The notes under the pieces: model-generated
Seen by the model: only the letters and a program-made list of their open reading frames with translations
Told to the model about the DNA's origin: nothing
The model's database searches: none
Program-made: the position numbers and the translations under genes
Source: Deltaproteobacteria bacterium
GTDB taxonomy: Bacteria; Desulfobacterota; Desulfobacteria; C00003060
Length of the DNA stretch: 13,346 nucleotides
Reading direction: 5' to 3'
NCBI GenBank assembly: GCA_030667105.1
Contig: DAOUWN010000020.1
Location: forward strand, 1-13,346
Shown here: positions 2,289 to 9,517 of the stretch, in pieces
Numbering within the stretch: the stretch's first letter is position 1
How the letters are laid out: every line of letters begins with the position of its first letter

Positions 2289-3350
2289 ATGTCGTCAAGC
2301 ACGGGCGTGGTCCGCCATGACATTTACAAACAGCACCGTGCCGGTTATCCCCATGTTGAAAGCCCACAGCGTCTGGAAGTGATTTATGACATGCTGGATG
2401 AGGCAGAGATGGCTGGAAAATTTGTTGCAATCCCGCCCCGTGCAGCCACCCGCGAGGAGCTTGCCTGGGTCCACAGCGAGTCTCACATCCAAAGGGTCGC
2501 CGCCACAGACGGAAAGCCCCATTCGTCTCTCGACCCTGATACCCAAACAACCCCCCTGTCCTTTCAGGCGGCTGAACTGGCAGTTGGCGGTCTGCTCTGC
2601 CTCGTTGACAAGATCTTTGACGGCACTGTAAGAAACGGTTTTGCCCTGGTAAGACCCCCGGGACATCATGCAGAACGTGACCGCGCTATGGGCTTTTGCC
2701 TCTTTAACAATGTGGCCTGCGGCGCCCTCTATGCCATGAACATCCATTCGGTTAAGAGAGTACTCATCGTGGACTGGGACTTGCATCATGGTAACGCCAC
2801 TCAAAACAGCTTTTATGAAGAACCCGCTGTCCTCTACTTTTCCACACACCAGTTCCCTTACTATCCGGGAAGCGGCGATCTCGCGGAAGTGGGACAGAGC
2901 TCTGGCAAGGGCAAGGGCTATACCGTCAATGTCCCATTATGGCCGGGCCACGGAGATACGGATTTTTTCCAAATCTTCAAACAGATCCTCACTCCTATTG
3001 CAAGCGCATTCCAGCCTGAGTTTATCTTGGTGTCTGCCGGGTTTGACACCTATGTGGATGATCCCCTGGGGGGGATGAAGGTCACACCAAAGGGTTATGC
3101 TGCCCTTGCTCGTGTTATCATGGAAATTGCCCAAACCTATTGCTCTGGCCGGCTGGCCATTACTCTCGAGGGAGGCTATCACCTGGAAGGACTTCGAGAA
3201 TCAGTCAAGGCGGTACTTAAGGAACTTGCCCGGGAAAGCATACTGACCAAGGACGATTTGGAGTCCCTTGAACAAGGGACAATACCCCCCATTGTAAAAG
3301 ACGTGATAGAGATGCAGAGGACGTATTGGCCTTTGAGCTTTCAGCTTTGA
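2289..3350 (+). CDS. Histone deacetylase family (class II-like) zinc deacetylase
   Basis: A 353-residue arginase/deacetylase-fold enzyme that removes acyl groups from lysine or small amines using a zinc ion; bacterial members include AcuC, HDAH and acetylpolyamine amidohydrolases. Seen: HVESPQRL near the N-terminus (22-29), RPPGHHAE (122-129) with the catalytic His pair 126/127, FCLFNN (136-141), VDWDLHHGN (161-169) with probable zinc ligands Asp164 and His166, YPGSG (192-196), AGFD (250-253) with the third ligand Asp253, and LEGGY (293-297) with the transition-state Tyr297. All catalytic residues are present. The DWDxHHGN and YPGSG forms resemble class II enzymes more than AcuC. No signal peptide, so cytoplasmic. 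The start has AGGGAGG four bases upstream. It ends one base from the stop of the convergent livM. The substrate cannot be read from sequence. Confidence 0.95.
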   Translation: MSSSTGVVRHDIYKQHRAGYPHVESPQRLEVIYDMLDEAEMAGKFVAIPPRAATREELAWVHSESHIQRVAATDGKPHSSLDPDTQTTPLSFQAAELAVGGLLCLVDKIFDGTVRNGFALVRPPGHHAERDRAMGFCLFNNVACGALYAMNIHSVKRVLIVDWDLHHGNATQNSFYEEPAVLYFSTHQFPYYPGSGDLAEVGQSSGKGKGYTVNVPLWPGHGDTDFFQIFKQILTPIASAFQPEFILVSAGFDTYVDDPLGGMKVTPKGYAALARVIMEIAQTYCSGRLAITLEGGYHLEGLRESVKAVLKELARESILTKDDLESLEQGTIPPIVKDVIEMQRTYWPLSFQL

Positions 3351-3385
3351 GCTACTGGTTTTCACCCTTGAGCTTTGAGCTACTG
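3343..3385. repeat. 15-bp direct repeat at the convergent gene ends
   Basis: AGCTTTGAGCTACTG occurs at 3343-3357 and again at 3371-3385, 28 bases apart, with further partial copies (CTTTGAGCTTTCAGCTTTGAGC) starting at 3331. The first copy overlaps both stop codons (deacetylase TGA 3348-3350, livM TAG 3352-3354). Because 28 is not a multiple of three, the second copy met by the livM frame supplies its stop. There is no terminator-like hairpin with a T-tract here. Confidence 0.7.
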
Positions 3386-4377
3386 CACATGCTTCTGACC
3401 TTTTCGGGTATGCTTACCACCCCGCCCGGGAGAAAGATCACAATGATCAATACAATGGCACCGTACACCATGACCTCGGCTTCTTCAAAATAGTGAAGCC
3501 ATTCATAGCTGAGAAAGGTGATCAGCACGGCGCCCATGATGGCCCCCCAAAGACTGTAGATGCCCCCCAGGATGATCATAATAAGAAGTTTGATGGAGAC
3601 AAAGAGATCAAAGCTCGCAGGGTTGATAAAGTTCAAATAATGGGCATGCAGGCTGCCTGCAACCGAGGCCACTACGGCAGACAGCACAAAAACATAGATC
3701 TTGTATTTTGCAACGTTCACCCCAACGGCGCTGGCTGCCAACTCGCTGCCGTGTATTGACCGCAGTGCCCTGCCCACCCTTGATTGGATAATGTTAAGAC
3801 AAAGCAACAGCACCACGAGAACCACGCTCCAGACAAAGAAGTAGTATTTCACGACCGAATCGAGAGCATACCCCATAATGCTAATGCCCGGAATGAAAGC
3901 CAGCCCGTCAGGACCTCCTGTAAACGCTACGGACTCATTGAAGATGATCGTGATAATTATGCAAAAAGCCAGGGTTGCCATGGCAAGGTAGTGCCCTCTC
4001 AGCCTCAAAGATGGGACGCCAATTATGAAAGCAACACCCCCGGAGACCACCATGCCAAGGAGGATGCAAAACCATGGGTTCACGCCATACCTTGCCGTTA
4101 TGACACCTGAAACGTAGGCCCCCAACCCGAAAAACGAGGCATGGCCAAGGGATATCTGGCCTGCATAACCCATCAGAAGACAGAGCCCAACTGTTACAAG
4201 ACTATAAATCCCTACAAAGACCATGACATCCACGTAATGCTCAAAAAAACTGATCCATCGGGCAAGCAAAGGAAATAGAAACAGACACACCCCAAAGATC
4301 GTCAGATGCACAGCGCTCCTGTTTTTGGCCAACCCGTAACTCCTCGTCATCACTACTTCGCAAAAAAGCCCCCACAC
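3352..4377 (-). CDS. livM: LivM-family ABC transporter permease
   Basis: One of the two inner-membrane permeases of a branched-chain (hydrophobic) amino acid type ABC importer; it pairs with LivH. The 341 residues form many hydrophobic segments. Family marks: GYAGQISLGHASFFGLGAY (70-88), TGGPDGL (153-159), the cytoplasmic ATPase-contact loop VGRALRSIHGSELAASAVGVNV region (201-222), and LGGIYSLWGAIMGA (270-283). The start given is GTG, eight bases after the livH stop, with AAGGAAG about 13 bases upstream. ATG at 4350 would remove nine residues and is equally possible, but has no good ribosome site. The last codons lie in a direct-repeat region. livG and livF, which normally follow, are absent: the next gene is the convergent deacetylase. 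Confidence 0.93.
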   Translation of the reverse strand: MWGLFCEVVMTRSYGLAKNRSAVHLTIFGVCLFLFPLLARWISFFEHYVDVMVFVGIYSLVTVGLCLLMGYAGQISLGHASFFGLGAYVSGVITARYGVNPWFCILLGMVVSGGVAFIIGVPSLRLRGHYLAMATLAFCIIITIIFNESVAFTGGPDGLAFIPGISIMGYALDSVVKYYFFVWSVVLVVLLLCLNIIQSRVGRALRSIHGSELAASAVGVNVAKYKIYVFVLSAVVASVAGSLHAHYLNFINPASFDLFVSIKLLIMIILGGIYSLWGAIMGAVLITFLSYEWLHYFEEAEVMVYGAIVLIIVIFLPGGVVSIPEKVRSMCSSSKLKGENQ

Positions 4378-4384
4378 CGTGAGG

Positions 4385-5287
4385 TCAAAACTTCCTTATT
4401 TTGCTCACCTCGGCATTTCCCAACAAACCGCTCGGTCTCACAAACAGAACAAGAAGCAGAAGTAAAAGAGCAAAAACATCCTTGTATCCGGAAGAGACAA
4501 GCCCGGCCCCAAGGGACTCAATCAAGCCGATAAGGAGACCGCCGGTCACAGCTCCCGGAAAACTCCCCATACCGCCAAGAACACAAGCCGAAAATCCTTT
4601 CACCGCAAGCATGGCGCCTCTATCGTATTCCATAAGAGATATCGGCGTTATCACGATCCCGCCCAGGGCGCCAATTGCCGCACTCAAGGCAAAGGAGACA
4701 AGGACCATATGTTTGACATTAATGCCAACGAGGCTGGATGCGCTCGGATTCACCGCACAGGCCCTGAGGGCTTTTCCAAGAATGGTGCGGTCGAAAAAGA
4801 GAGTTAGCACGACCACGACCACTAACAGGAAACCAACGACCCACAGGCCCTGAGGTTGCACGACGGCCCCCAGAAAAGAGATAGGGTTTCGGCCCGAAAA
4901 AGGGGGCAAGTCAAAAGGGTTCTTCCCCCAAAGCATCATGGCGGCTCCTCTGATGAAAAAAGACGCCCCAATCGTAGCAATGACCATGGCAAGAACCGAT
5001 GGTTTGGAAAGGGGCTTGATGGCTAGTCGGTCCAGAAGAATGCCCACCATTGTAACCAGCATGATCGTAAGGGGCAGGGAAAATATCACCGGGATATTCA
5101 CGGCAACCCGCAAAAATACCATGACCAGCCCCCCCAGCATGACGAACTCACCCTGGGCAAAATTGATGGCCTCGGTAACATTATAAATAATGTTAAACCC
5201 GATAGCCACCATGGCATAGATACTCCCGATGGTGACACCCGTTATGGCGTACTGAAGAAGCTGGCTTGCAAAAGAAATCTCTTCCAT
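4385..5287 (-). CDS. livH: LivH-family ABC transporter permease
   Basis: Second inner-membrane permease of the same importer. The 300 residues are the usual length. Family marks are the N-terminal IGFNIIYNVTEAINFAQGEF (29-48), the ATPase-contact loop GKALRACAVNPSASSLVGIN (171-190) and LGGMGSFPGAVTGG (237-250). It probably makes about eight membrane segments. The ATG at 5287 has only a weak ribosome site. It lies 213 bases after livK, a gap holding repeat arrays and a weak promoter-like pair, so its expression may be partly separate from livK. It is followed almost directly by livM, pointing to coupled translation. Confidence 0.95.
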   Translation of the reverse strand: MEEISFASQLLQYAITGVTIGSIYAMVAIGFNIIYNVTEAINFAQGEFVMLGGLVMVFLRVAVNIPVIFSLPLTIMLVTMVGILLDRLAIKPLSKPSVLAMVIATIGASFFIRGAAMMLWGKNPFDLPPFSGRNPISFLGAVVQPQGLWVVGFLLVVVVVLTLFFDRTILGKALRACAVNPSASSLVGINVKHMVLVSFALSAAIGALGGIVITPISLMEYDRGAMLAVKGFSACVLGGMGSFPGAVTGGLLIGLIESLGAGLVSSGYKDVFALLLLLLVLFVRPSGLLGNAEVSKIRKF

Positions 5288-6741: not shown

Positions 6742-7173
6742 CTACAGCGTGTATACGGTTTTGCCTTCAAGGACTTTTACATTGTTTTCTTGAAGGAGTT
6801 TGACTGCGGTATCAATATCATCAAAACGGAAAATGATGACCGCGTTCTTGCCACTGTGCTGAACAAACGCATACATGTATTCCACATTGACACTCTGCTC
6901 GCTAAGAATACCCAGTATGTGGCTCAACCCTCCTGGCCTGTCTTCCACCTCCACTGCTACGACATCAGTCTTTCCCACGGTGAAACCGTGTTCTTTTAAA
7001 ACTGTCTTGGCCTTGTCATTGTCGTTGACGATTAGACGCAAAATGCCGAAATCAGATGTGTCGGCCAAGGAGAGGGCCCGGATAGTCACTCCTGCCCCTG
7101 ACAGCACCCGGGTGACTTCGGCGAGCCTGCCCGCCTTGTTTTCCAGAAATATGGATATCTGTTCGACTCGCAT
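6742..7173 (-). CDS. Tandem ACT-domain amino-acid-binding protein
   Basis: A 143-residue stand-alone regulatory protein made of two ACT domains, about 4-66 and 72-140. Each has the ligand-loop signature: [10 protein letters not shown] at 11-20 and [11 protein letters not shown] at 78-88 (acidic/Asn-x-Pro/Ala-Gly-x-Leu). ACT domains bind amino acids, often at a dimer interface, and control linked enzymes. Stand-alone two-ACT proteins frequently sit beside phenylacetate-CoA ligase genes, but their exact job is not settled. Its start has AAGGAG six bases upstream, inside the 14-base gap after paaK, so the two are very likely co-translated. In this operon a phenylalanine or other aromatic amino acid is a sensible ligand, by inference. 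Confidence 0.9.
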
Positions 7174-7187
7174 GATTCGCTCCTTTC

Positions 7188-8489
7188 CTAAGTCTTGCGT
7201 TTGTCTATAACTCGTTTGGCCTTTCCTTCACTGCGCTGTATGGTCTTGGGTTCTACCAGGTGAACCATGCATGACACCCCCAGCAGATCCTTAATGTCCT
7301 TTTCAATGTCCCGTTCCATATTCTGAAGATCCTTCACGGCATCGGAAAAGATGTCTTCGTTGATTTCAACATTTACTTCCAGCGTGTCCATGCGCTCTTT
7401 GCGATCAACGATCAACAGATAGTGGGGCGCCACTTCCTTTCTGGCCATAAGAACACTCTCTATCTGGGACGGAAAAACATTCACACCTCGAATGATGAGC
7501 ATGTCATCAGAACGCCCCGTGATCCGTCCCATGCGGGCCAGGTTTCTGCCACATCTGCAGGGTTCGCGATGCAACACAGAGAGGTCTCTGGTCCGGTAGC
7601 GAATGAGCGGAAAGGCTTCTTTGGTAAGCGTGGTAAAAACCAACTCTCCGGGCTCCCCGTACGGGAGGGGTTCGCCGGTTTCCGGATTGATAATCTCGGC
7701 AATAAAATGATCCTCAAAAATGTGCAGCCCTTTCTTGGCCTCCACACATTCCACTGCCACACCGGGCCCCATGACCTCGCTCAGGCCATAGATATCCACA
7801 GCATCAAGACCAAGCCGCCTTTCAATTTCATTTCGGATATTCTCAGTCCAGGGCTCAGCGCCAAGAACCCCGACTCTGAACTTTAGCGCCTTAAAATCAA
7901 CCCCTTCCTCGGCCGCCACATCGGCCAGGCGAAGGGCGTAGGAAGGTGTGCAGGTGAGGACCGTGGCGCCAAAATCCTTCATGAGCAAAATCTGTCGCTT
8001 GGTGTTGCCCCCAGACACGGGAATCACCGAAGCCCCCAGTCTTTCAGCGCCGTAATGGAAGCCAAGGCCACCGGTAAAGAGCCCGTACCCGTAGGCATTA
8101 TGGACAATATCGCCTTTGTGTGCGCCTGCGGCTGCCAGCGTGCGAGCCATGAGCTCTGACCATGTACGAATGTCCCGGCGCGTGTAGCCCACAACCGTCA
8201 GCTTTCCTGTCGTGCCGGAGGAAGCGTGGATCCGTACCACGTTTTCCATTGGCGTGGCAAACATGCCAAAGGGATAATTGTCGCGCAAATCCTGTTTCAT
8301 GGTAAAGGGGAGTTTGGGCAAGTCCTCGAGGGACTTAATGTCGTCTGGTTTCACCCCCTGTTCATCAAACGCCTTTTTGTAAAAAGGAACAGTGGCGTAC
8401 ACCCTTTCTGCCATGTCACGGAGCCTTTTTAACTGAATGGCTTCAAGGGCCTCCCTTGGCAGGGTCTCAAACTCCTCATCGAAAATCAT
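7188..8489 (-). CDS. paaK: Phenylacetate-CoA ligase (AMP-forming)
   Basis: Activates phenylacetate or a related aryl acid to its CoA thioester with ATP, through an acyl-adenylate. The start chosen is ATG at 8489, preceded by AGAGGAGG eight bases upstream. It gives the standard PaaK opening [20 protein letters not shown] and 433 residues, the usual size. The GTG at 8528 would add 13 unlikely residues. Motifs with this numbering: P-loop SSGTTGK (90-96), DIYGLSE (232-238), YRTRDLS (298-304), the CRCG pair of cysteines (311-314), [11 protein letters not shown] (325-335), and the C-terminal EGKAKRV with the lysines typical of adenylate-forming enzymes (about 423-425). First structural gene of the operon. 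The leader holds a Phe-rich peptide and a terminator. Indolyl- or hydroxyphenylacetate may also be substrates. Confidence 0.96.
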
Positions 8490-8564
8490 TTCTGATACCT
8501 CCTCTACAGAGTATTGTTCCCGCGCCACCTGGTTCTTTTACGGCAAGCCCGCCCTGGCGGCCCA

Positions 8565-8599
8565 AAAAAGGCCATGGAGCCAAGCACCATGGCCTTTTT
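8565..8599 (-). terminator. Intrinsic terminator inside the paaK leader (attenuator)
   Basis: On the minus strand AAAAAGGCCATGG (8599-8587), loop TGCTTGGCT, then CCATGGCCTTTTT (8577-8565) form a perfect 13-bp stem ending in a run of six T, followed by GGG. The 8-bp GC-rich core plus T-tract is a strong Rho-independent terminator. It is symmetrical and would also work on the plus strand. It ends about 75 bases before the paaK ATG, downstream of the predicted promoter and the leader peptide, so most transcripts would meet it before paaK. Confidence 0.85.
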
Positions 8600-8704
8600 A
8601 AATCGTGGGCACAAAAAAACCACGGGGCGCTCACCTTCGCCTACCCATGGTCTCTATCTGTCAGCCGGCTTCAGACCTAGGAAGACCCATGGGCAGGCTT
8701 CCTA
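8600..8704 (-). promoter_or_regulatory. Alternative RNA stems between leader peptide and terminator
   Basis: TAGGAAG (8704-8698) pairs with CTTCCTA (8684-8678), whose end overlaps the leader stop codon: a pause-type hairpin. Competing helices: 8693-8683 with 8653-8644 (10 bp with one bulged G), GGTCT 8677-8673 with AGACC 8653-8649, GGCG 8641-8638 with CGCC 8629-8626, and CGTGG 8624-8620 with CCACG 8608-8604. CCATGG occurs four times across leader and terminator (8572, 8587, 8645, 8687), so each can pair with any other. ACCATGG (8651-8645) also fits CCATGGT in the terminator's 5' arm. Confidence 0.6.
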
Positions 8705-8769
8705 AAAAAGAAGAGGAAACCTCCAAAAAAGGCCTTCACAAAATCCGCAAAAAAACCGTGCCCTTTCAT
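8677..8769 (-). CDS. Phenylalanine-rich leader peptide of the paaK operon
   Basis: ATG at 8769 opens a 30-codon frame ending in TAG at 8679-8677. Residues 6-22 read FFADFVKAFFGGFLFFF: nine Phe (seven TTT, two TTC) in 30 residues, with no Tyr or Trp. The T-runs at three places are all in phase as Phe-Phe. The peptide resembles the enterobacterial PheL leaders in composition and in starting Met-Lys. Such peptides have no function of their own; ribosome stalling at Phe codons when Phe-tRNA is scarce changes the fold of the downstream RNA. A hairpin overlaps the stop codon and a terminator begins 78 bases later, the standard attenuator order. Odd point: no ribosome site is seen, and the predicted transcription start lies only a few bases before the ATG, so translation may be leaderless. 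Confidence 0.72.
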   Translation of the reverse strand: MKGHGFFADFVKAFFGGFLFFFRKPAHGSS

Positions 8770-8778
8770 AATTTTGGA

Positions 8779-8808
8779 ATTATTATTGGATTTTCCTCAT
8801 TGTGTCAA
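8779..8808 (-). promoter_or_regulatory. Predicted sigma-70 promoter of the paaK operon
   Basis: On the minus strand a perfect -35, TTGACA (8808-8803), is followed after 18 bases by AATAAT (8784-8779, five of six consensus bases). It lies between the TPR gene and the leader peptide, directly after the TPR stop codon region, and predicts a start near 8772. Confidence 0.55.
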
Positions 8809-8815
8809 GAAAAAA

Positions 8816-9517
8816 CTACCCTTTGAGGCCAAGGACCTTTTCTTCGGCAATCTTGCCGTGGACAGAGGCAGGAAAGTCAGTAACCACCCTGTTGTATGCC
8901 TCCATGGCCTTTTCCCGATTGTTCAAGGCCTCATAAATACGCCCCAGGTTGAAATAGGCCCCTGCCTTCATGAATCCACTTTCAGAGTGAGTCAAGTTCT
9001 GAAAACACTGGGCCGCAGATCTGTAATCTCCTTTCCCTTCGTAAGCATATGCCAGGCCGTTCCACATGAGCTGTTGGAAGCCTTCTTCTTCTGAAAAAGC
9101 CTCAAGCGCCCCCCTGTAAAGCCCAATGGCCTCATCGTACAAACCCTCCTTGTAGTTCATGTCCGCGTACAACGGTAAGCTGAGTTGAGCAGCCTTTGTT
9201 GATGGATAATCACGGAGAACCTCGGCAAATTTCGCCTTGGCTGCCTCGTCAAAGTGGGCTGACTTCCCCCCCGAAACTTGCCCAAGATAGTGAACAAGCC
9301 CTTCCTCAAATAGAGCATAGGCCTTGCGTTCTGACAGATTCGAGAAATATCGAAATGCCCCCAAAACGAGCATAACAACAACCAATCCGATCAAGGCATA
9401 ACAAATCCGTCTTTGGTTCTCTGTTGCAAACTGGATCATTTTGGCCGAAAAAGTCAGGAACTCATCCGGCTCTTTAAGAAGTTGTTTTCTTGTTACCCGT
9501 TTCTTTTTTTTTTCCAT
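8816..9517 (-). CDS. Membrane-anchored tetratricopeptide repeat protein
   Basis: Start ATG at 9517 is chosen because AAGGAG lies six to seven bases upstream; the frame is open back to 9592, but the extra 25 residues have no ribosome site. The 233-residue protein has a very basic start (MEKKKKRVTRKQLLKEPDEF), one membrane segment (about 38-56) and an outward C-terminal part made of TPR-like helix pairs. The clearest are 120-180 (YKEGLYDEAIGLYRGALEAF, then AYAYEGKGDYRSAAQCF) and 185-217 (AYFNLGRIYEALNNREKAMEAYNRVVTDFP). The layout resembles YfgM-type periplasmic TPR proteins that help at the Sec translocon or in envelope assembly, but no specific family was proved. Its stop is eight bases from the paaK promoter -35. 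No terminator of its own is seen, so it may read into the paaK leader. Confidence 0.8.
   Translation of the reverse strand: MEKKKKRVTRKQLLKEPDEFLTFSAKMIQFATENQRRICYALIGLVVVMLVLGAFRYFSNLSERKAYALFEEGLVHYLGQVSGGKSAHFDEAAKAKFAEVLRDYPSTKAAQLSLPLYADMNYKEGLYDEAIGLYRGALEAFSEEEGFQQLMWNGLAYAYEGKGDYRSAAQCFQNLTHSESGFMKAGAYFNLGRIYEALNNREKAMEAYNRVVTDFPASVHGKIAEEKVLGLKG

What the first reader, a model, noticed from the sequence alone, without database searches (positions are those of the whole stretch)
8565..8808. Phenylalanine attenuator in front of a phenylacetate-CoA ligase operon
Seen: a promoter (TTGACA-18-AATAAT), then a 30-codon frame with nine Phe codons and no Tyr/Trp, a hairpin covering its stop codon, competing stems, and a 13-bp terminator with six T before paaK. 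Established: this order (Phe-rich peptide, pause hairpin, terminator) defines the pheA and pheST attenuators of enteric bacteria. Inference: paaK, the ACT gene and livKHM are controlled by ribosome stalling at Phe codons. I know of no described Phe leader peptide on a paaK operon, but I could not search.
Basis: partly seen in the sequence, partly recalled or inferred. Interest (0 to 1): 0.85.

Follow-up and report, generated by a model that had tools for sequence, protein, structure and literature searches.

The report
Phenylalanine attenuator before paaK operon
A short phenylalanine-rich peptide and a set of competing RNA hairpins sit in front of a phenylacetate-CoA ligase and transporter operon; relatives keep them, which suggests that these bacteria switch the operon on when phenylalanine runs short, as if it served to make phenylalanine rather than to degrade it.

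Summary
On the minus strand a promoter (8808-8779), a 30-codon frame with nine Phe codons (8769-8677) and competing hairpins precede paaK-ACT-livKHM. The same arrangement precedes paaK in at least 16 families of the phylum (14 in the window's order). Compensatory changes support helices 1:2, 2:3 and 4:5. A covariance model built without the peptide matches 306 of 389 genomes of the order. In twelve genomes, all 50 sites read, 44 carry a leader peptide; at the 29 before genes of known amino acid the control codons fit (Phe, Tyr, Trp, Leu).

Two corrections. The hairpin over the stop codon looks like the antiterminator, not a pause hairpin: segment 1 starts 5 nt after the last Phe codon, so ribosomes stalled earlier leave it free. 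The fold evidence for this scheme is suggestive, not uniform, and the leader is absent in 6 of 13 same-genus genomes. Control by Phe implies a role in Phe supply (aryl-acid salvage or uptake), which is inferred.

The parts
8779..8808 (-). Promoter TTGACA-18-AATAAT. In the window and six same-genus relatives TTGAC starts 36-39 nt before the leader ATG, which puts a predicted start within a few nt of the ATG
8677..8769 (-). Leader peptide gene MKGHGFFADFVKAFFGGFLFFFRKPAHGSS*, nine Phe codons
   Evidence: conserved in relatives
8687..8698 (-). Segment 1 (GCCTGCCCATGG), in codons 24-28 of the leader, begins 5 nt after the last Phe codon
8639..8650 (-). Segment 2 (CCATGGGTAGGC), pairs with segment 1 (proposed antiterminator) or with segment 3
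8613..8626 (-). Segment 3 (CCCGTGG) and T7; with segment 2 forms proposed terminator 1 (8651-8613)
8587..8599 (-). Segment 4 (AAAAAGGCCATGG), pairs with segment 5, or with segment 3 (proposed second antiterminator)
8564..8577 (-). Segment 5 (CCATGGCC) and T6; with segment 4 forms terminator 2
7188..8489 (-). paaK-like phenylacetate-CoA ligase, 433 aa
   Evidence: AMP-binding, AMP-binding_C_2; TIGR02155 624.6 bits, below its cut-off of 646.3
6742..7173 (-). ACT domain pair protein (ACT_8), 143 aa
5501..6712 (-). livK-like periplasmic binding protein of an ABC transporter
   Evidence: Peripla_BP_6; below NCBIfam cut-offs
4385..5287 (-). livH-like permease
3352..4377 (-). livM-like permease; no ATPase gene follows it in the window (the next gene is on the other strand)

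Best explanation
It is a ribosome-mediated transcription attenuator that reads charged tRNA-Phe and controls paaK-ACT-livKHM. RNA polymerase starts just upstream of a Phe-rich leader gene. When Phe is plentiful the ribosome runs to the stop codon and covers segment 1; segment 2 then pairs with segment 3 (terminator 1, U7) and segment 4 with segment 5 (terminator 2, U6), and transcription stops before paaK. When Phe-tRNA is short the ribosome stalls on the Phe codons. Because segment 1 begins about 5 nt beyond the last Phe codon it stays free for most stall sites and pairs with segment 2, so terminator 1 cannot form; segment 3 is freed, pairs with segment 4 as it emerges, and delays terminator 2, so the operon is read. 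Shown by comparison: the frame, its Phe codons, the helices 1:2, 2:3 and 4:5, the fixed geometry, and the fit of codons to genes in sister leaders. Inferred: the order of events, the 3:4 step, and that tRNA-Phe charging is the signal. By implication the operon supplies Phe (uptake of phenylacetate or Phe; PaaK with indolepyruvate ferredoxin oxidoreductase running towards phenylpyruvate).
For: Helices in 20 aligned leaders: 1:2 has 97.9% of cells paired and 12 cells with changes on both sides, 0 of 500 shuffles as high on either; 2:3 plus 4:5 has 97.4% and 27 such cells in 9 pairs, 0 of 500. Own-partner duplex energies beat permuted partners for 1:2, 2:3, 3:4 and 4:5 in 62 distinct leaders, 0 of 2000 permutations each; of two controls, upstream:segment 4 does not (725 of 2000), upstream:segment 3 does (0 of 2000, but by 1.0 kcal/mol only). 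Frame: 44 of 46 paaK leaders have one frame strictly richest in Phe. Geometry: by the script's count segment 1 starts 3-4 nt after the last Phe codon in 40 of 44 leaders (5 in the window by direct reading); with the ribosome on the stop codon 2:3 wins in 44 of 44, and 36 of 44 have at least one Phe stall position favouring 1:2. A run of four or more T follows segment 3 in 16 of 20 leaders. Scaffold: 44 of 50 model sites in 12 genomes carry a leader peptide. In G034 paaK-ACT and livKHM lie on different contigs, and each has its own leader with Phe codons. Ior alpha is present in 25 of 25 leader-bearing genomes, and iorB lies directly upstream of paaK in 7 of 8 annotated loci without leader (not a random sample).
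Against: No expression data. Equilibrium folding favours 1:2 at a majority of Phe positions in only 18 of 44 leaders and at none in 8; in the window only F20 and F21 favour it. Terminator 2 forms at equilibrium (P 0.98 or more) wherever the ribosome stands in the three leaders tested, so escape needs kinetic 3:4 pairing, which has no compensatory change in the 20 paaK leaders and is not supported for the Ala and TRAP leaders. Four of 20 leaders (L016, L024, L040, L049) lack a T run after segment 3. 1:2 is not supported in Trp-type leaders of the same scaffold. The leader is missing in 6 of 13 same-genus genomes that hold the gene, and its presence changed at least three times on the paaK tree. 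PaaK scores below its NCBIfam cut-off, so the substrate is uncertain.
Confidence: 0.81

Rival explanations
1. Classic four-segment attenuator as in enteric pheA: the ribosome stalled at Phe codons covers segment 1, freeing segment 2 to form an antiterminator 2:3, and only the last hairpin is a real terminator; 1:2 is a pause hairpin.
For: Leader frame, competing stems and a final U-tailed hairpin are present. A ribosome with the last Phe codon in its A site covers part of segment 1, and then 2:3 wins in the folds (F22). Four of 20 leaders have no T run after segment 3.
Against: 2:3 is followed by seven T in the window and by four or more T in 16 of 20 leaders, so it looks like a terminator. 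Segment 1 begins after the last Phe codon in 42 of 44 leaders. Forming 2:3 would leave segment 4 free to form 4:5, that is, termination.
Confidence: 0.15
2. The hairpins are terminators of the upstream TPR gene and the Phe-rich frame is a by-product of T-rich sequence; paaK is expressed constitutively or from elsewhere.
For: Six of 13 same-genus genomes have paaK behind the TPR gene without the leader. Ten of 5000 shuffles give as many Phe codons in an ATG frame. Six of 50 model hits are plain terminators without peptide.
Against: The upstream gene differs between relatives, yet frame, helices and spacing persist. The same scaffold carries other, fitting codons before other genes.
Confidence: 0.03
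3. The leader senses something other than tRNA-Phe charging, for example a nascent-peptide arrest by the conserved tail FFFRKSxHG.
For: The peptide tail F-[FY]-F-[RK]-K-[SP]-x-H-G recurs in many leaders while the front varies (judged by eye).
Against: Most of that tail (KSxHG) is encoded by segment 1 and follows from pairing with segment 2. Sister leaders keep the scaffold but change the codon run to Tyr, Trp, Leu or Ala.
Confidence: 0.05
4. The attenuator is real but the operon is catabolic (phenylacetate or Phe degradation), and Phe control has an indirect role.
For: PaaK and Ior can also run in the direction of Phe degradation (general knowledge). Two loci annotated have an enoyl-CoA hydratase upstream of paaK (L022, L043), and several more look alike (by eye).
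Against: The same kind of leader, with Phe codons, precedes Phe biosynthesis genes (fused DAHP synthase-prephenate dehydratase, chorismate mutase-prephenate dehydratase); an operon that opens on Phe starvation is an odd choice for degrading Phe.
Confidence: 0.2

Closest known systems
Phe attenuators of pheA and pheST in gamma-proteobacteria (Rfam Phe_leader RF01859; PMC1262725 cites Panina 2001 and Vitreschak 2004 for them)
   Same: Phe-rich leader peptide, competing stems, U-tailed terminator, target read when Phe is short (principle; enteric details recalled)
   Different: No match above the Rfam cut-off in any of 8 genomes; two U-tailed hairpins; segment 1 beyond the Phe codons; target is paaK-ACT-liv
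Putative attenuator before aroA'-aroB'-aroQ-pheA-aroF-tyrA-trp in Desulfovibrio vulgaris (PMC1173090, Table 7, after a database by Merino)
   Same: Predicted attenuator on aromatic amino acid genes in a delta-proteobacterium; aroA' (ADH synthase) is also a target of the scaffold described here
   Different: The passages that I read give neither leader peptide, nor segments, nor paaK; whether it is the same element was not tested
trp attenuators of Corynebacterium and Streptomyces (PMC1262725, passages)
   Same: Control codons in a leader peptide, competing antiterminator and terminator hairpins
   Different: There the passages describe one antiterminator and one terminator; here four successive helices and two U-tailed hairpins
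Aryl-acid route to aromatic amino acids in Methanococcus maripaludis (Porat 2004, as cited in PMC4162585)
   Same: Indolepyruvate ferredoxin oxidoreductase linked to aromatic amino acid synthesis from aryl acids
   Different: An archaeon; here only gene neighbourhood and regulation suggest such a route

Membership tests
Ribosome-mediated amino acid attenuator (general kind) | Short leader frame rich in the codons of one amino acid, upstream of the operon and downstream of a promoter | tested here: met
Ribosome-mediated amino acid attenuator (general kind) | Mutually exclusive helices, one of them terminator-like, conserved by compensatory change | tested here: met
Ribosome-mediated amino acid attenuator (general kind) | Control codons fit the amino acid of the target genes | tested here: met
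   29 of 29 sister sites before genes of known amino acid; for paaK itself the fit is what is being inferred
Ribosome-mediated amino acid attenuator (general kind) | Read-through rises when the charged tRNA falls | not testable with these tools
   no expression data
Rfam Phe_leader RF01859 | Match to the covariance model at the gathering score | tested here: not met
   0 of 8 genomes over cut-off, 1 of 14 control genomes over it; no Rfam family in 8400-8900 of the window (best 17.3 bits against 53) or in 20 sister loci
Classic four-segment scheme (stalled ribosome covers segment 1) | Segment 1 overlaps the control codons | tested here: not met
   segment 1 starts after the last Phe codon in 42 of 44 leaders; a ribosome at the last Phe codon can still reach into it
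Phenylacetate-CoA ligase PaaK (TIGR02155) | Score over the curated cut-off | tested here: not met
   624.6 against 646.3 bits; it is the best NCBIfam family, so PaaK-like

The most novel reading that the evidence does not exclude
Desulfobacterota share one modular attenuator scaffold across the aromatic amino acid regulon. Its Phe/Tyr form carries an extra segment that inverts the classic logic: the stalled ribosome acts by leaving segment 1 free, which blocks terminator 1 and, through a cascade, terminator 2. Its attachment to paaK-ACT-liv shows that in this phylum PaaK with indolepyruvate ferredoxin oxidoreductase works anabolically, scavenging phenylacetate or related aryl acids from anoxic surroundings into phenylalanine, with the liv-type transporter as the aryl-acid importer.
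Probability: 0.45. Interest if true: 0.78.

Novelty: new variant of a known kind. Interest (0 to 1): 0.66.

Why it matters
Genes annotated as phenylacetate degradation are under a switch that fits Phe supply. If right, it gives a function to a widespread paaK-ACT-liv operon of sulfate reducers and their kin, predicts an aryl-acid (or Phe) importer, and makes an old physiological idea (phenylacetate as a Phe precursor in anaerobes; recalled) directly testable. It also extends amino acid attenuation, whose motifs one survey thought may have originated in gamma-proteobacteria (PMC3766115, passage read), to many genomes of another phylum, with Phe, Tyr, Trp and a few Leu and Ala leaders on one scaffold, and offers a way to assign amino acids to orphan transporters and aminotransferases there.

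Tried and rejected
Rfam scans gave nothing: only chance hits (best 17.3 bits against a gathering score of 53), no match in 20 sister loci. RF01859 gave only weak matches below cut-off. No similar DNA in the plasmid collection. The consensus terminator scan listed neither hairpin. First I read the upstream regions of ten minus-strand loci on the wrong strand; one search put this right. I considered a spurious frame, a plain terminator of the TPR gene, and nascent-peptide arrest, and down-weighted them as told under rivals. 3:4 pairing had no compensatory change in the 20 paaK leaders; it is supported only by the own-partner tests over the wider set. One of the two controls (upstream against segment 3) also beat its permutations, which is expected if segments 1 and 3 both resemble the complement of segment 2, but it shows how the shared palindrome blurs these tests. 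The Trp-type leaders do not support 1:2, so the inverted scheme should not be stretched over the whole scaffold; how those work is unresolved. Nine searches for reports of Phe, paaK or Desulfo attenuators or of the aryl-acid route listed no such leader; these are search listings of open-licence papers. Of PMC4833913, PMC1262725, PMC3766115, PMC4162585, PMC1173090 and PMC11109978 I saw passages only.

Full report
WHAT IS THERE. On the minus strand a TTGACA-18-AATAAT promoter (8808-8779) precedes a frame at 8769-8677, MKGHGFFADFVKAFFGGFLFFFRKPAHGSS*, with nine Phe codons. Five short segments follow that share the core CCATGG or a near copy: 1 (8698-8687, inside the frame), 2 (8650-8639), 3 (8626-8620, then T7), 4 (8594-8587, preceded by five A) and 5 (8577-8570, then T6). 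Then come paaK (start at 8489), an ACT_8 protein, and livK, livH and livM homologues. Shuffled sequence rarely gives such a frame (10 of 5000 with ATG starts), and 8555-8775 folds better than each of 200 shuffles.

RELATIVES OF THE OPERON. paaK orthologues of 83% identity or more occur in 13 of 22 same-genus genomes; 12 became loci there, and the 13th (G002, frame interrupted) was fetched. Seven have the leader (L001, L002, L004, L007, L009, L012, L205); in six (L003, L005, L006, L008, L010, L011) paaK follows the TPR gene without it. On the paaK tree of 22 rows the leader label needs five changes, three of them forced by starred branches, so it is gained or lost readily. Outside the genus the leader was first seen in L016-L019 and then in nine of 80 named loci (L024 Desulfacinum infernum, L026, L028, L034, L040, L043, L044, L049 Desulfobotulus alkaliphilus, L050).

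COVARIATION. In 20 leaders, helix 1:2 has 97.9% of cells paired and 12 cells changed on both sides (for example C-G for U-A at the second pair, U-A for G-U at the fifth); slid versions reach at most 48%. Helices 2:3 and 4:5 reach 97.4% with 27 such cells in nine pairs; slid versions at most 54.6%. Pairing 3:4 is possible in 95.7% of cells but shows no change on both sides. Seven of the 20 rows, the window included, are of one genus, so these counts are not independent events. A T run (four or more in the next ten bases) follows segment 3 in 16 of 20; L016, L024, L040 and L049 lack it.

A MODEL WITHOUT THE PEPTIDE. I built covariance model R1 from segments 2-5 only. It matches 306 of 389 genomes of the order at E <= 0.01 and 148 of 395 drawn over the phylum at E <= 1e-5 (14 of those 148 are of the window's order). 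Some matches are plain terminators (see below). Of the 30 loci fetched, 29 lie before paaK and one (L127) before ADH synthase. Phe-type leaders before paaK were seen in 14 families of the order (f1, f11, f13, f15, f16, f22, f24, f28, f30, f43, f59, f62, f67, f69; that of f30, L139, has three Phe only) and two outside it (f139, f155).

THE FRAME IS REAL. R1 knows nothing of the peptide, so the frame upstream is an independent test. In 46 distinct paaK leaders the richest frame holds 7.1 Phe on average against 2.1 in the others; it is strictly richest in 44, has five or more in 38, and an ATG in 42 (L024, L040 and L124 were misjudged by the script's segment finder, and L101 starts with GTG). The distance from ATG to segment 1 ranges from 24 to 115 nt but differs by multiples of three in 37 of those 42 (most often 61; exceptions L007, L009, L019, L179, L203). 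TTGAC lies within 160 nt upstream of the start in 41 of 46, and 36-39 nt before it in the window and six same-genus relatives, which predicts a very short untranslated region for the leader gene there.

ONE SCAFFOLD, SEVERAL AMINO ACIDS. In twelve genomes the model gave 61 rows, 11 of them opposite-strand shadows, leaving 50 sites, all of which I read. Forty-four have a leader peptide: before paaK 10 (Phe; L139 weakly), livK 2 (Phe), fused DAHP synthase-prephenate dehydratase 5 (Phe), chorismate mutase-prephenate dehydratase 1 (Phe/Tyr), ADH synthase 5 (Phe/Tyr/Trp), DAHP synthase 5 (aromatic), trpE 9 (Trp), TrpB-like 2 (Trp), tyrS 1 (Tyr), leuA 1 (Leu), aminotransferases 2 (Ala runs), a TRAP-type binding protein 1 (Trp). 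Six have none and look like plain terminators. At the 29 sites before genes whose amino acid is known (all but paaK, livK, the aminotransferases and TRAP; TrpB-like counted as Trp) the codons fit in 29. The classification is my reading; gene names rest on NCBIfam for 17 of the 44 (trpE, livK, the chorismate mutase domain and the L159 aminotransferase score below curated cut-offs) and otherwise on likeness of the N-terminal sequence judged by eye.

SPLIT OPERON. In G034 paaK-ACT lies on contig C20 with no liv homologue in the 9 kb behind it (L208), and livKHM with two ATPase-like genes lies on contig C7 (L207); both have their own leader with Phe codons (L116 and L135). In G353 a livKHM locus with ATPase-like genes and a paaK paralogue (36%) has one too (L133, L206).

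HOW IT WORKS. By the script's count segment 1 starts 3-4 nt after the last Phe codon in 40 of 44 leaders (others L007 2, L205 7, L126 -5, L179 -1); in the window the gap read directly is 5 nt, so the script's edge is probably one base outside the helix. Taking 13 nt from the first base of the A-site codon as the ribosome's leading edge (recalled; PMC4833913 says up to 12 nt downstream), I folded what lies free. With the ribosome at the stop codon 2:3 beats 1:2 in 44 of 44, as it must when segment 1 is covered. With the ribosome on a Phe codon 1:2 wins at one or more positions in 36 of 44, at most positions in 18, at none in 8. L034 switches cleanly (F5-F18 give 1:2, F19 onward 2:3); in the window F20 and F21 give 1:2, F22 onward 2:3, and earlier Phe positions favour 2:3 (P of 1:2 0.02-0.32); L024 never favours 1:2. 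So the equilibrium picture is suggestive, not uniform. The 4:5 hairpin forms at equilibrium in all states of the three leaders tested; it can be avoided only if 3:4 forms first and holds while the polymerase passes, as with other attenuators (general knowledge). Own-partner duplexes support 3:4 over the wider family: -13.05 against -11.39 kcal/mol in 62 distinct leaders (own better than the row median in 35 of 62) and -14.55 against -11.30 in the 31 without CATGG (27 of 31), 0 of 2000 permutations both times; of the controls, upstream against segment 4 gave 725 of 2000, upstream against segment 3 gave 0 of 2000 (-10.14 against -9.11). Compared only between gene classes, own 3:4 is better in 44 of 51, but not on average for the Ala and TRAP leaders; own 1:2 is better in 40 of 51, clearly so for paaK, livK, DAHPS-PDT, pheA, ADH synthase, tyrS and leuA, not for trpE or Trp-type DAHP synthase. 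Relatedness inflates such tests.

WHAT IT IS FOR. Sister Phe leaders precede Phe biosynthesis. An ACT homologue follows paaK within about 700 nt in 66 of the 80 named loci. Of eight loci without leader whose upstream gene I annotated, seven have the beta subunit of indolepyruvate ferredoxin oxidoreductase and one (L022) an enoyl-CoA hydratase (chosen by their look, so not a random sample). The alpha subunit is encoded in 25 of 25 leader-bearing genomes, over the cut-off in 22. This fits the route aryl acid to aryl-CoA to aryl pyruvate to amino acid, as reported for Methanococcus maripaludis (Porat 2004, cited in PMC4162585, passage read). Against: enoyl-CoA hydratases upstream in some loci, and the ligase is below the PaaK cut-off, so its acid is not certain.

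COMPARED WITH WHAT IS KNOWN. It works like the enteric Phe attenuators in principle but does not match Rfam's Phe_leader, and no Rfam family covers it. An attenuator before aroA' in Desulfovibrio vulgaris was predicted earlier (PMC1173090, Table 7), so attenuation of aromatic genes in this group is not wholly new; paaK as a target, the five segments and the shared scaffold did not turn up in my searches. [quoted passage not shown]

VERDICT. Confirmed observation, supported interpretation, with a corrected mechanism: new variant of a known kind.

Noticed in passing
L144 1333-1581: Tyr-rich leader (QAYYYCGYYPYP) and the scaffold in front of tyrS.
   Followed up: partly
L161 172-378: Leu-rich leader (LLLLLGLL) and the scaffold in front of leuA.
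   Followed up: partly
L159 136-377 and L170 2694-2893 (minus strand): Ala-run leaders (KAAAAD, GAAAAAAAGG) in front of aminotransferases, the first alanine-transaminase-like but below cut-off.
   Followed up: partly
L164 2633-2800 (minus strand): Trp-rich leader (YYWWWR) in front of a TRAP-type substrate-binding protein: candidate tryptophan or indole-acid importer.
   Followed up: partly
L191, L198, L199, L200: Phe/Tyr leaders in front of class I/II aminotransferases (L198 annotated, the others alike by eye): candidate aromatic aminotransferases.
   Followed up: partly
L131, L145, L156: DAHP synthase fused to prephenate dehydratase, preceded by a Phe leader ending FRSVHP.
   Followed up: partly
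L003, L005, L006, L008, L010, L011: Same-genus paaK behind the TPR gene without the leader.
   Followed up: yes
window 8703-8688 (minus strand): AGGAAG lies 7 nt before an internal ATG in the leader tail (MGLPRSEAG*), like a ribosome-binding site; AGGAAG recurs in many paaK leaders. Meaning unknown.
   Followed up: no
window 8808-8769: The predicted transcript start lies within a few nt of the leader ATG, so the leader gene may be translated almost leaderless.
   Followed up: partly
L138, L140-L142, L151, L152, L157, L158, L163: Trp leaders before trpE share segments 2-5 but not the 1:2 pairing; how stalling is read there is unexplained.
   Followed up: partly
window 2289-3350: Histone-deacetylase-like protein on the plus strand, convergent with livM, the ends one base apart.
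   Followed up: no
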